Assembly (NCBI GenBank): GCA_025352235.1
Contig: JANXTU010000101.1
Location: 1-41,423, forward strand
Length of the DNA: 41,423 bases
Source of the DNA: Fimbriiglobus sp.
Lineage (GTDB): Bacteria; Planctomycetota; Planctomycetia; Gemmatales; Gemmataceae
Direction: 5' to 3'
The position numbers and the translations under genes are program-made. Every line of letters starts with the position of its first letter. Within the stretch, counting starts at the first letter, position 1. The notes beneath the pieces are model-generated. The model did no database searches. It was not told the origin of the DNA and was given only the letters and a program-made list of their open reading frames with translations. Below are positions 8,863-38,046 of the stretch, one piece after another.

Positions 8863-10848
8863 ATGCGCAGCTACTATTCCGACCGAATCGAAATCTTTGT
8901 CGACAAATCTCAAGATGCCGTTTTAGGAGCGATTGCGAGGGCGAACGAATTCCCACTTGAACCCACGCAACGGGATTCATGGCATTATCAAATATCGTTG
9001 CTGCAAAAGATTCTATCAGAGTACAAGGGGCGTGGAAAGGTGCACTTCGAATTCACAGTCCCCCGCTTAGGCAAGCGGATCGATGCTGTCGTTATCATCG
9101 ACGCCATTGTCTTGGTTCTAGAGTTCAAAGTGGGCGAATCGGCGTTCGCAACGTACGCACACGATCAAGTTTGGGATTACGCGCTGGATTTAAAGAACTT
9201 TCACGAAGCGAGCCACTCTCGGTTCGTTGTGCCCATCCTGATCGCGACCGACGCCGATCCGCGTGAGCCGGTGGCTTTCCAAATTGATCACGATCAACTC
9301 GTTCGGCCGATCCGTTGCAACGCCGACGAATTGGGCGGCGTCATCCGGCGGGCCATCGCCGAACTTCCCCGCGACAAATCTATCTGCGACGAATGGGAAA
9401 AGGGACGGTATTGCCCGACGCCTTCGATCATCGAAGCCGCAATGGCATTGTACAACGGACACAAAGTCGCAGAAATATCGCGGAGCGACGCCGGTGCTGT
9501 CAATTTGTCCGAGACTTCGCAATCGGTCTCGGACATCATCCGCTTGTCGCGCGAGAAATCGCAGAAATCGATTTGCTTCGTCACTGGGGTCCCGGGTGCT
9601 GGAAAGACGCTGGTCGGCCTGAATATCGCGACCCAACACATTGATAAAATGAGCGAATTGTACAGTGTCTTTCTATCGGGCAACGGCCCACTCGTGGCGA
9701 TTCTTTGCGAAGCACTCGCACGGGATCGCTTGCAAATTGCGAAGGCCCGAGGCATCCGGCTTCGGAAGGGTCAAACCAAGAGCGAAGTCAAGTTATTCAT
9801 CCAGAATATCCATCACTTTCGGGACGATTGCCTTAACAATGGCGAATCTCCGCCGATCGAGCACGTTGTATTGTTCGACGAAGCGCAACGTGCATGGAAT
9901 CACGAACAGACCGCTAGCTTTATGAAACGAAAGAAAGGCCGCGCAAATTTCCCCGTATCGGAGCCGGAATTCTTGATCTCTTGCATGGATCGTCACAAAG
10001 ATTGGGCGGTAATCGTATGCTTGGTAGGCGGCGGACAAGAAATTAATACCGGCGAAGCCGGTATTTCGGAATGGATTCGTTCCGTCGTCCGATCCTATCC
10101 CGATTGGCATCTATACATTTCGGGCCGACTTTCCGATAGCGAGTACCGGGCGGATGAGACTCTCAAAGCGATCAAAGATCGCCCCAACGTGGTTTATAGC
10201 GATCCCTTACATCTTTCGGTCTCTATGCGATCCTATCGGGCTGAAAACGTCTCGCTGTTGATTAAACAACTATTAGATCTGGATATCCCGAACGCCGAAA
10301 AGACGTTCCGTCAGATTTCGTTGCAATACCCGATTTGCTTGACTCGCAACCTCGACGATGCGAAGGTTTGGCTCAAGGGTAAGGCCCGAGGAAGCGAGCG
10401 ATTTGGAATCGTCGCTTCCTCGCAAGCGCAGCGGCTGAAACCGCACGCGATCGACGTCCGCTCCCCCATAGATCCCATCCATTGGTTTTTGGATGGAAAG
10501 AACGACGTGCGATCTTCGTATTACCTCGAAGACGTGGCGACCGAATTCCAAGTCCAAGGCTTGGAATTGGATTGGACATGCGTGACGTGGGACGCGGATT
10601 TGCGTCTTCACAACTCGGCTTGGGATTATAAGTCGTTTTGCGGTCACCGTTGGACGAACGTCAAGAAGCCTTCTCGCAAGCAGTATCTTCTGAATGCTTA
10701 CCGCGTATTGCTCACCCGTGCGAGGCAGGGGATGGTGATATTCGTACCTCCTGGATCGGCGGAAGACCCGACTCGATTGCCAGCTTTCTACGACTCCACG
10801 TACGATCTTTTATGCCGTATTGGTATCCCCCCGATTCCATCGAAGTGA
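8863..10848 (+). CDS. DUF2075-type P-loop NTPase with N-terminal nuclease-like domain
   Basis: The 661-residue protein combines two parts. Residues ~1-200 look like a PD-(D/E)XK nuclease: Asp74 in RIDAVVIID and Glu87-Phe-Lys89 in LVLEFKVG. Residues ~225-661 form a helicase-like NTPase of the DUF2075/Schlafen-associated type: Walker A GVPGAGKT near 241-249, Walker [13 protein letters not shown] near 335-346, [15 protein letters not shown] near 560-575, and a late [17 protein letters not shown] motif like superfamily-1 motif VI near 613-630. The start is ATG 8863; the ribosome binding site is weak (GGAG at 8846-8849 is rather far). The stop lies 8 bases from the convergent FAH gene. Base composition looks lower in GC than in the surrounding genes, suggesting transfer. 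Nucleic-acid remodelling coupled to cleavage is inferred. Confidence 0.8.
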
Positions 10849-35532: not shown

Positions 35533-35560
35533 GAAAGCCCGACGCATTCGCCGGGCTTTC
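35533..35560 (+). terminator. Hairpin terminator after the cytochrome c gene
   Basis: A perfect 9-base inverted repeat, GAAAGCCCG (35533-35541) and CGGGCTTTC (35552-35560), with a 10-base loop, begins 15 bases after the cytochrome stop. There is no T-run after it beyond the three T in the stem. It ends two bases before the ATG of the next gene. Confidence 0.6.
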
Positions 35561-35562
35561 GT

Positions 35563-38046
35563 ATGTTCGGATTCGATAGCGATCCCCTTCGCGGTGCGGA
35601 GAAAGCCTTGATCGATACGAATGCTCCGCTCCTGCTCCCGGAGCGTTTGACGGCGGCGATCGCTCGAATCCGTGTTTGCGAACAAAACGTGTTGGACCGT
35701 CCACTCTCAGCGTGGTCGCTAACCGACGATCGCCACGTTCCGCAGATGTACCTCGCGCGCCCCGTGCGAGACTTGCTTACGCTCACTTATGAAGAACTCG
35801 AAAACACCCCGAGTTTAGGCCGAACCCGCATCGAGAAACTCGTGGAGGTCATGGAAAGGATCAATTCTGGCGGCGATTCGAAACCGTTTCCGGGCTCCAA
35901 TTCTGAACGCCGGTTTTTGGACATCCAAGCCGAATTGAGCGGCTCCGACGCGACGGCTTTGGCGCGGCCTTTCGAATCGTGGGTGCTGGCCACCGACAGC
36001 CACCTCCCGCAAAGCTATTTGAGGCGATCGCTTTCGGAAATCCTTTCCAGCCGGTATGAACAATTGGTTCGGGAACCGGGGGTCGGTGCCGGGAAGATCG
36101 AAAGAGTTTTGGATGTCCTCGAGCGTTGCGCAGCGGAATTGAACCCCGATCGGCACCCGATTCGGGAGTCGCCACCCAGCGATTCGGGCGGACGGCAAAC
36201 CACGGTCGAAAACATCACCGAGACGGAATGGCGGAAGTGGTGCGACCGGATCCGGCTCCACCGATTGGAACGCGATAACCTCGGTCGCTACGCCGGCTGT
36301 TTGAACGATCTGCCGCAAGGACTATGGACTGTGCCGCTGGGGGAATATGCAAATCGGTCCTTGCACGCCATCCGGGCCCTGCCGAACCACGGTCCCGTCC
36401 GCGTGTCCGATGTCCTCAAGGTATTCGCGCGCATCTTCGAATCGATCCGGGAGAATCCGGGCGAGGGCTTTTTGTCGGTGCGGCTGTTCGCTCCGCAGAT
36501 CCGCGACGTCGTTTTGTGGGCCGAAGGAATTCTGCGGAGCGGGGGCATTCCGGACGAAGCCTCGATCCGCGCCGGCTTCTTAACGCCGATCTTCGCGTTG
36601 TTGGAAGAGGACTTGGGACGGGATAAAGCGGCGATGCTGCGGCGGCGGATGGGATTGGACGGGCCAGTGGAAACGCTCGAGCAGATCGCGATCGGCGCCG
36701 GGGTCACCCGCGAACGGATCCGGCAGATCGCGGCGAAAGCGGCGAGCGCCATCGAAGTCCGATGGCCGGAGGGACGATATCTTCTCGACGGCGTTTACAC
36801 CCTCTTCAAAAGCTCACCGGATGCCGATGGGCAAATCGACCTCTTACGGGGCGTGTTCGACGCTTGTTTTTCTATCGATGTCGTCCGTGAGAGTTCCCGG
36901 AGCGACGTGCTCGCCGCATGGGATCGCGCGGGGCGGGCGAAGTTGACACCGATGGCGCGGTCGGCGGTACGATCTTGGGCCGGCGGCGAGTTTCCGGCCA
37001 TCCCCGCCAATGCGGTGCTAAACGGTTTGGAGGAACACGGGTTGCGCCGCGACGGTCCCGATGGCGAGGACCTGTATTACACAAACGACCCACTCGACAA
37101 GCTCCTCCTCCACCTCATCTCGATCGCCGACCCGATGCCGCTCGCGGAACTGACCGGCTTTTTGGAAGGGGATGAGCGGAACGCGAAAATGCGCTTGGAG
37201 CGCGACCCGCGCTTCGTCGAAGACGAGTTTAAACGGGTGACGCCCGCCGAGCGATGCGGTTTCCGACGCGTCGATGGACGATGGACTTTGCGGCTCGAAC
37301 CGGCAGGGGTCACCGCGCCGCGGGACGAATCGATCGCCGTGATCGCACTCATCCACCTCATCGTCGGCGGCTTGACCCACGCCGGCATCTGCGACGCCAC
37401 CGTCTGGGGCGTCCACCGTTTCGCCGGCGACCAGCTCGCGAAGCTGTTCGGAGCGAAGTTGCCGGCCGCCCTGACCCCGTTCGTTTTGGCGCGGATGTTC
37501 GTGGTCCACTCCGACGGCCTCGTCCGGCCGATGCGCCGGAGGAGGCTCCGTTGGGACGCGCCCCGCGGTTCGATCCGTCCGCGCGGCAAATGCGGTTGGG
37601 TCGACCACGTCGCCACCACCGCTGGCGTCCCGTTGACGTTCGACGAACTCGACGCCGCGCTGAGGGTCCACTTTCAAGATTACGAATGGTACGTTTTAAA
37701 GCAGCTCGATCAGCTCGACGACGAAGAGGGAGAGACGGAATTCGGCTATCAGTACCTCCAAGGCGTATCGAACGCCGTGCCGGGGATGCTCATTCCCGCC
37801 GGTTGGGAGTTCGATTCCTCGTTGGTCAATGTTTCCGCGGGTGTTCGGCTCGCCGTGGCGAAGCTGGTGCGCATGAGCAAACGGGCGCCCGTTCCCAAAG
37901 GATATCTGCGTCGAATCCCTTGGATGATTCGACTTTGCGAAGTGGTCGCACCCGCGACGATGCGTTGGTCGGAAGAGCCGATACCCGAAGATCTGCCGGG
38001 CGATATTTGCCAATCCCCGCCGATTCCGGCGGAAAATTGGGAATAG
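35563..38046 (+). CDS. Unknown protein with two alpha-CTD-like modules and a sigma-70 region-4-like HTH
   Basis: The 827-residue protein has no catalytic motif I recognise. Residues ~46-100 and ~135-188 are two copies of one module with the shared frame R-P-(L/F)-x2-W-x-L-x2-D-x-H-x-P-Q-x-Y-L-x-R, then Y-E-x-L-x3-P-x-(L/V)-G and I-E-x5-V-x-E-R; the second half (LLTLTYEELENTPSLG) resembles the helix-hairpin-helix of the RNA polymerase alpha C-terminal domain. Residues ~370-401 (LEQIAIGAGVTRERIRQIAA) match sigma-70 region 4.2. The C-terminal half has further HTH-like segments but no known domain name. DNA binding at promoters is inferred. The start is uncertain: ATG 35563 abuts a terminator and has no ribosome binding site, while TTG 35608 has GGAG 6 bases upstream. 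Confidence 0.8.
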   Translation: MFGFDSDPLRGAEKALIDTNAPLLLPERLTAAIARIRVCEQNVLDRPLSAWSLTDDRHVPQMYLARPVRDLLTLTYEELENTPSLGRTRIEKLVEVMERINSGGDSKPFPGSNSERRFLDIQAELSGSDATALARPFESWVLATDSHLPQSYLRRSLSEILSSRYEQLVREPGVGAGKIERVLDVLERCAAELNPDRHPIRESPPSDSGGRQTTVENITETEWRKWCDRIRLHRLERDNLGRYAGCLNDLPQGLWTVPLGEYANRSLHAIRALPNHGPVRVSDVLKVFARIFESIRENPGEGFLSVRLFAPQIRDVVLWAEGILRSGGIPDEASIRAGFLTPIFALLEEDLGRDKAAMLRRRMGLDGPVETLEQIAIGAGVTRERIRQIAAKAASAIEVRWPEGRYLLDGVYTLFKSSPDADGQIDLLRGVFDACFSIDVVRESSRSDVLAAWDRAGRAKLTPMARSAVRSWAGGEFPAIPANAVLNGLEEHGLRRDGPDGEDLYYTNDPLDKLLLHLISIADPMPLAELTGFLEGDERNAKMRLERDPRFVEDEFKRVTPAERCGFRRVDGRWTLRLEPAGVTAPRDESIAVIALIHLIVGGLTHAGICDATVWGVHRFAGDQLAKLFGAKLPAALTPFVLARMFVVHSDGLVRPMRRRRLRWDAPRGSIRPRGKCGWVDHVATTAGVPLTFDELDAALRVHFQDYEWYVLKQLDQLDDEEGETEFGYQYLQGVSNAVPGMLIPAGWEFDSSLVNVSAGVRLAVAKLVRMSKRAPVPKGYLRRIPWMIRLCEVVAPATMRWSEEPIPEDLPGDICQSPPIPAENWE

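What the first reader, a model, noticed from the sequence alone, without database searches (positions are those of the whole stretch)
35563..38046. 827-residue protein joining duplicated alpha-CTD-like modules to a sigma region-4-like HTH
Two modules of about 55 residues share a strict pattern and look like the helix-hairpin-helix of the RNA polymerase alpha C-terminal domain, which binds UP elements and activators. A later segment (LEQIAIGAGVTRERIRQI) matches sigma-70 region 4.2, which binds -35 boxes. Having both in one large protein with no sigma region 2 suggests a promoter-binding regulator of unknown type rather than a sigma factor.
Basis: partly seen in the sequence, partly recalled or inferred. 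Interest (0 to 1): 0.72.

Follow-up and report, generated by a model that had tools for sequence, protein, structure and literature searches.

The report
Orphan member of a phage-defence DNA-binding family
The gene encodes a large protein built only of DNA-binding parts borrowed from the transcription machinery, and its closest long relatives sit beside a known bacterial anti-virus system, so it looks like an overlooked defence component that here has been separated from its partners.

Summary
The 827-codon ORF (35563-38046, +) carries two clearly duplicated RNA polymerase alpha-CTD-like modules, a third divergent one, then a sigma region 4, with no sigma region 2. A model adds four winged-helix-like domains; no catalytic domain was found. 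Solved structures most like modules 2-3 are alpha-CTDs (best Z 5.4); those most like residues 328-438 are sigma region 4 (Z 8.5). Short homologues (~365 aa) are chromosomal genes in many Planctomycetia. Long forms sharing the whole C-terminal half are rare, and the window belongs with them. Of eight distinct long forms, four lie beside PbeABCD phosphorothioation defence genes, one beside a Druantia-type helicase, one at a contig end, and two (window and a congener) stand alone. Matching alpha-CTD/sigma-4 proteins flank PbeA in five of 14 plasmid loci examined. I think the family supplies the DNA-recognition subunit of some Pbe-type defence systems, and the window copy (Fimbriiglobus, Gemmataceae) is an orphan kept without its partners. 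The promoter-regulator reading is partly supported. The papers I could search do not describe this component; PglW, BrxL, DndH and MzaA are related precedents. A decoy sensor of phage attack on RNA polymerase is the boldest reading not excluded.

The parts
35563..38046 (+). ORF, 827 aa, long-form alpha-CTD-like/sigma-4/winged-helix protein
   Evidence: homologues; AF2 model
35608..35610 (+). likely alternative start (TTG, GGAG 6 nt upstream); residues 1-40 have pLDDT under 50
   Evidence: sequence; inference
35533..35560 (+). terminator-like inverted repeat (GAAAGCCCG/CGGGCTTTC) after the cytochrome c gene, ending 2 nt before the listed ATG
   Evidence: sequence printed; read by eye
35689..35868 (+). 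alpha-CTD-like module 1 (residues 43-102)
   Evidence: duplicate of module 2, 0 of 2000 shuffles
35947..36141 (+). alpha-CTD-like module 2 (residues 129-193)
   Evidence: VIA-align to RNAP alpha-CTD, Z 5.4, rmsd 2.1
36274..36450 (+). divergent third module (residues 238-296)
   Evidence: family-level hhalign to module 1, probability 95%
36574..36762 (+). sigma region 4 HTH (residues 338-400), recognition helix TRERIRQ
36760..36876 (+). conserved RWPEG motif and two helices (residues 400-438), modelled close to where sigma-4/beta-flap-tip chimeras carry the flap helix
   Evidence: rows 1-5; motif; placement inferred
36898..37080 (+). predicted winged-helix domain 1 (residues 446-506)
   Evidence: secondary structure; 2mh2 Z 6.7 over 448-508
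37084..37293 (+). predicted winged-helix domain 2 (residues 508-577)
   Evidence: SelB winged helix 1wsu_A, Z 7.4 over 508-568
37330..37554 (+). predicted winged-helix domain 3 (residues 590-664), with the long-form signature DATVWGVHRF
   Evidence: secondary structure; conservation; no fold match tested separately
37531..37557 (+). long-form signature M-R-R-R-R-L-R-W-D (residues 657-665)
   Evidence: alignment; used as search pattern
37591..37797 (+). predicted winged-helix domain 4 (residues 677-745)
   Evidence: secondary structure; no fold match tested separately

Best explanation
The protein is a non-catalytic, multi-domain DNA binder: three alpha-CTD-like modules, a sigma region 4 and four winged helices. 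It belongs to the long-form branch of a planctomycete family whose other members, where context can be read, mostly lie in PbeABCD (CxC ABC-ATPase) phosphorothioation defence loci. Most likely mechanism in those loci (inferred): it recognises DNA, perhaps by sequence and modification state, and positions or licenses the PbeA HKD-nuclease/helicase and PbeC ATPase there, i.e. a specificity or scanning subunit. In the window's genome no good PbeA or DndC match was found, so this copy is an orphan. It probably persists as a stand-alone DNA-binding regulator, or serves a system still to be found. Shown: architecture, branch, neighbourhoods. Inferred: DNA binding, partnership, mechanism.
For: Fold. 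Long-form neighbourhoods: Rhodopirellula SM50 (long form immediately followed by PbeA, frames overlapping 4 nt, then PbeB-, PbeC- and PbeD-like ORFs), Fimbriiglobus GL140, G122 and G232 (DndC in both). All 3 genomes with a strong PbeA match among 297 class genomes have an adjacent sigma-4 protein. Matching proteins beside PbeA in plasmids of Ruegeria, Pontibrevibacter (135), Rhizobium NXC14 (16), Aurantiacibacter (77) and Arthrobacter (78, 119): 5 of 14 PbeA neighbourhoods examined, out of 28 records found. Aurantiacibacter and Arthrobacter pass Pfam cut-offs for both alpha-CTD and sigma-4. hhalign is co-linear from sigma-4 into the winged helices for G134 (probability 94.6) and from before sigma-4 into them for Arthrobacter (93.2). 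The window groups with long forms, not short forms (90/82; with G003 99/95). The recognition helix is [TS][RK]ER[IV]RQ in 8 of 8 long and 2 of 2 mid forms but RARxYQ in 34 of 36 short forms. Precedent: PglW of BREX has an alpha-CTD-like domain plus three wHTHs (PMC12839542, passages).
Against: The window copy has no defence partner nearby, and neither it nor G003 has a strong PbeA or any DndC match in its genome (G000 is about 90% complete). Nine of 14 PbeA plasmid neighbourhoods, one archaeal, have no detectable sigma-4 protein within 5 kb, so it is not essential to Pbe. Neighbourhood is not function; no DNA binding or interaction was tested. Solitary relatives also occur on Mycolicibacterium and Mycobacterium plasmids. 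alpha-CTD Z-scores are below 8.
Confidence: 0.45

Rival explanations
1. A promoter-binding transcription factor: sigma-4 reads a -35-like box and the modules touch upstream DNA or RNA polymerase, so it regulates the defence operon or host genes.
For: The recognition helix TRERIRQ type is kept in 8 of 8 long forms, as in RpoD (alignments); a solitary chromosomal copy and widespread solitary short forms (47 of 297 class genomes carry a strong match, most of them short forms) fit a regulator; archaeal Pbe in Haloprofundus lacks it.
Against: The modules carry Asp near the place of the alpha-CTD Arg265 (inferred); the model suggests the sigma-4 face that binds the beta flap may be covered by residues 404-438; eight tandem domains are more than a simple operon regulator needs.
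Confidence: 0.25
2. An RNA polymerase mimic that senses phage takeover: sigma-4 and alpha-CTD are parts phages attack (T4 AsiA and Alt/ModA, recalled), and decoy copies in a defence locus could trip the nuclease when hit.
For: Exactly these two RNAP parts are combined, repeatedly, next to nucleases; no region 2 match was seen in the members given to Pfam.
Against: No direct evidence; the short forms and solitary copies are unexplained; the planctomycete modules have drifted far from alpha-CTD; one paper search found nothing on it.
Confidence: 0.1
3. A decaying leftover of a lost Pbe locus with no present function.
For: Strong PbeA and DndC matches are missing from G000 and G003; the neighbourhoods in G000 and G003 differ.
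Against: Intact 827-codon frame; 51% amino-acid identity to G003 over 703 codons with fewest changes at codon position 2 (0.28) and most at position 3 (0.55), which suggests constraint since they split.
Confidence: 0.1
4. A planctomycete housekeeping DNA-binding protein like the short forms, recruited to defence loci only secondarily.
For: Short forms have recurring chromosomal neighbours and occur in many families.
Against: The window lies on the long-form side of the tree and has the whole long-form C-terminal half, absent from short forms.
Confidence: 0.1

Closest known systems
PbeABCD / CxC ABC-ATPase phosphorothioation defence (PMC6459918, passages; PMC10853773, section 16 and passages)
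   Same: Long-form relatives are encoded beside PbeA, PbeC and dnd_assoc_4 (PbeD-like) genes, with Dnd genes
   Different: The alpha-CTD/sigma-4 protein is not among the components listed in section 16 of PMC10853773; the window copy has no Pbe genes
PglW of type 2 BREX (PMC12839542, passages)
   Same: alpha-CTD-like domain followed by three winged helices in a defence protein
   Different: PglW has kinase and ATPase-like modules and, in the passages read, no sigma-4; ours has no enzyme domain
MzaA of the MZA system (NF041931)
   Same: Sigma region 4 in a large defence-associated protein
   Different: The match covers region 4 only (27.1 bits against a cut-off of 800)
DndH variant and BrxL with sigma-type HTH (PMC10853773, PMC12839542, passages)
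   Same: A sigma-type HTH used in a defence protein
   Different: Those are ATPases/translocases; ours is DNA-binding modules only
RNA polymerase alpha-CTD and sigma-70 region 4
   Same: Fold, and for sigma-4 also sequence
   Different: No alpha-NTD, no sigma region 2; alpha-CTD contact residues probably not kept

Membership tests
sigma-70 family sigma factor | region 2 (promoter melting, core binding) | tested here: not met
   No region 2 match in Pfam, NCBIfam or PDB searches
sigma-70 family sigma factor | region 4 HTH | tested here: met
   PDB profile E 8.2e-11, Z up to 8.5; Pfam score below cut-off in the window protein itself
RNA polymerase alpha-CTD fold | alpha-CTD fold | tested here: met
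   Top VIA-align rows, Z 5.4 to 4.5; Z below 8, so fold level only; sequence alone is weak
RNA polymerase alpha-CTD fold | DNA-contact residues such as Arg265 (recalled) | tested here: inconclusive
   Asp145 falls near that place by the aligned ranges; not checked on coordinates
PbeABCD locus component (the window copy) | encoded with PbeABCD | tested here: not met
   Not in the window; no PbeA match at 1e-60 and no DndC match in G000
PbeABCD locus component (long-form relatives) | encoded with PbeABCD | tested here: met
   4 of 8 distinct long forms
MzaA | NCBIfam equivalog cut-off | tested here: not met
   27.1 against 800 bits
HARE-HTH | Pfam PF05066 | tested here: inconclusive
   Not listed for the window protein; weak in the Ruegeria and Arthrobacter proteins, E 0.11 and 0.12
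PglW | protein kinase domain | tested here: not met
   No kinase match in Pfam

The most novel reading that the evidence does not exclude
A fifth, undescribed component of bacterial Pbe-type defence that imitates two RNA polymerase parts (alpha-CTD and sigma region 4), with sigma-4 held by its own flap-like helix, and serves as a built-in decoy or sensor for phage attack on the host polymerase, firing the nuclease when the mimic is bound or modified; the window shows a copy set free from its system.
Probability: 0.1. Interest if true: 0.92.

Novelty: new variant of a known kind. Interest (0 to 1): 0.6.

Why it matters
If right, Pbe-type phosphorothioation defence, whose mode of action is disputed (PMC10853773, section 16), has an overlooked DNA-recognition partner in several phyla, built from transcription parts. 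That makes testable how such systems choose their DNA, and whether they watch the host's RNA polymerase. It also explains a group of proteins annotated only as 'sigma factor-like helix-turn-helix'.

Tried and rejected
Tried and led nowhere: the search for related loci in genome contigs with the single protein and in viral contigs with two alignments; structure search against viral proteins, no match under E 0.001; phage records, matches around region 4 only; paper searches for the architecture (no papers; a listing, of which I looked into PMC12458937 and PMC12839542; nothing on point in the listing). The passages of PMC12458937 that matched my terms do not mention such a protein in Druantia. 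Foldseek gave no PDB match under E 0.001 for either model; VIA-align carried the fold evidence. Winged-helix domains 3 and 4 were not tested on their own.

Rejected: sigma factor (no region 2); ordinary sigma-factor paralogue (other hits in G000 cover only the region-4 part); phage gene; chance repeat (0 of 2000 shuffles). Many of the 121 class genomes match only at the region-4 part of the profile, at E around 1e-7, probably ordinary sigma factors; I counted only the 47 with E below 1e-50, by hand from the listing.

Rows left out: identical sequences were dropped (51 hits to 46 proteins). The phylum search (12 of 392 genomes, two of them long forms, both already known) was not used for counts.

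Full report
Observation. The 827-codon ORF at 35563-38046 (+) is intact. Its first two modules (residues ~43-102 and ~129-193) are a real duplication, 0 of 2000 shuffles reaching the score. A third module at ~238-296 is visible at family level: profiles of the first and last module types match at hhalign probability 95%, E 2.7e-8. Sigma region 4 lies at ~338-400 (Pfam E 9.8e-4, below its cut-off; PDB profile E 8.2e-11). No sigma region 2 and no enzyme domain were found.

Fold. An AlphaFold2 model from seven sequences (pLDDT 77, pTM 0.44) shows the modules, the region-4 helices and, by secondary structure, four winged-helix units at about 446-506, 508-577, 590-664 and 677-745. VIA-align gave sigma region 4 up to Z 8.5 and, for the first two winged helices, 2mh2 (Z 6.7) and SelB (Z 7.4). 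Units 3 and 4 rest on the secondary structure pattern only. A second model of residues 108-300 (pLDDT 84) has RNA polymerase alpha-CTDs at the head of the list (9 of the first 11 rows as I read them; best Z 5.4, rmsd 2.1 A, 58 residues). Z is under 8, so this is a fold-level statement. By sequence alone the alpha-CTD link is weak here (E 0.47 and 0.61; hhalign probability 21%), but two proteins of matching architecture, from Aurantiacibacter (E 1.3e-10) and Arthrobacter (E 8.6e-6), pass the Pfam alpha-CTD cut-off together with sigma-4.

A model-based lead: the five best structure rows are chimeras of sigma-4 with the polymerase beta-flap-tip, aligned over 83-96 of 85-97 residues and reaching model residues 436-441, while ordinary sigma chains stop near 399-414. 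I infer that the helices after the conserved RWPEG motif lie where the flap tip binds. Coordinates were not inspected.

Family. A core profile finds strong matches (E under 1e-50) in 47 of 297 class genomes. Most are short proteins of about 365 aa. Among 20 neighbourhoods fetched, a glycosyltransferase-like gene recurs in four and an FMO-like gene in five. Long forms have an extra C-terminal half with signatures such as DATVWGVHRF and MRRRRLRW. A scan of genome contigs with these signatures returned seven loci. On a 46-row tree the eight long and two mid-length (510 aa) proteins lie on one side of a branch (90/82), with window and G003 together (99/95). The sigma-4 recognition helix separates the groups: [TS][RK]ER[IV]RQ in 8 of 8 long and 2 of 2 mid forms, RARxYQ in 34 of 36 short forms. 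By record title the congener is Fimbriiglobus, placed in Gemmataceae by the tree listing.

Neighbourhoods. Of eight distinct long forms, four lie with Pbe genes: G122 and G232 (DndC present), Fimbriiglobus GL140 and Rhodopirellula SM50. One lies beside a DruE-like helicase (L078; PADLOC DruE3 E 1.6e-203). One is at a contig end (L047/L076). Two stand alone: the window and G003. Neither of these two genomes has a strong PbeA match or any DndC match (the weak PbeA-profile hits at about 1e-29 cover the helicase part). The next congener, G002, whose Gfo/Idh gene is 91% identical, has no long form and a different gene beside its Gfo/Idh gene. Of 297 class genomes, three have a strong PbeA match, and all three have a sigma-4 protein beside it; the third (G134) is a more distant 748-aa protein.

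Beyond planctomycetes. The best plasmid matches of the window protein were 'sigma factor-like' proteins of Ruegeria and Rhizobium in dnd/Pbe loci. Of 28 plasmid records with a PbeA relative I looked at 14 neighbourhoods. Five have such a protein (Ruegeria, Pontibrevibacter, Rhizobium NXC14, Aurantiacibacter, Arthrobacter). Nine do not within 5 kb, one of them archaeal. In Aurantiacibacter the partner modification gene is a methyltransferase. Solitary relatives lie on Mycolicibacterium alvei and Mycobacterium avium plasmids, and one sits among helicase genes in Microbacterium.

Reading. The simplest account is a DNA-recognition subunit that some Pbe-type systems use, with the window holding an orphan. 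Precedents in print, from passages read: PglW has an alpha-CTD-like domain and three winged helices, and BrxL a sigma-type HTH (PMC12839542); some DndH proteins have a sigma-type HTH (PMC10853773); MzaA is called a sigma factor (PMC9523054). Section 16 of PMC10853773, which lists the components of CxC/Pbe systems, does not name an alpha-CTD/sigma-4 protein. The two earlier papers most likely to mention it (Aravind and Iyer 2012; and a 2020 ABC-ATPase survey whose identifier I recalled) are not held, so absence from print is not shown.

Against this reading: the copy in hand has no partner, most Pbe plasmid neighbourhoods looked at lack the protein, and nothing biochemical was tested. The regulator reading remains open, and a decoy reading cannot be excluded.

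Noticed in passing
window 8863-10848 (+): 661-aa protein: Schlafen group 3 helicase domain (Pfam 8.2e-77) and PADLOC candidate defence gene PDC-S41 (E 1.9e-281), about 25 kb from the gene studied
   Followed up: partly
G000:C107:4770-5213 and similar places in other genomes: Separate planctomycete proteins of roughly 450-580 aa with tandem strong alpha-CTD matches (E about 1e-20), longer than RpoA; function not examined
   Followed up: no
L077/L078: Long form fused to about 1000 further residues without Pfam match, followed by a 1793-aa DruE3-like helicase; a possible Druantia-type locus
   Followed up: partly
L153:5554-7455, L154:5707-7470: Solitary relatives of the Arthrobacter alpha-CTD/sigma-4 protein on Mycolicibacterium alvei and Mycobacterium avium plasmids, annotated hypothetical
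   Followed up: no
L053, L150, L151 (G083): One genome carries five matches to the short-form profile, two of them adjacent genes with degraded region 4
   Followed up: no
L149 (G134): Pbe-like locus with a phosphoadenosine phosphosulfate reductase-like gene nearby (read by eye) and a 748-aa sigma-4 protein with a possible alpha-CTD-like stretch
   Followed up: partly
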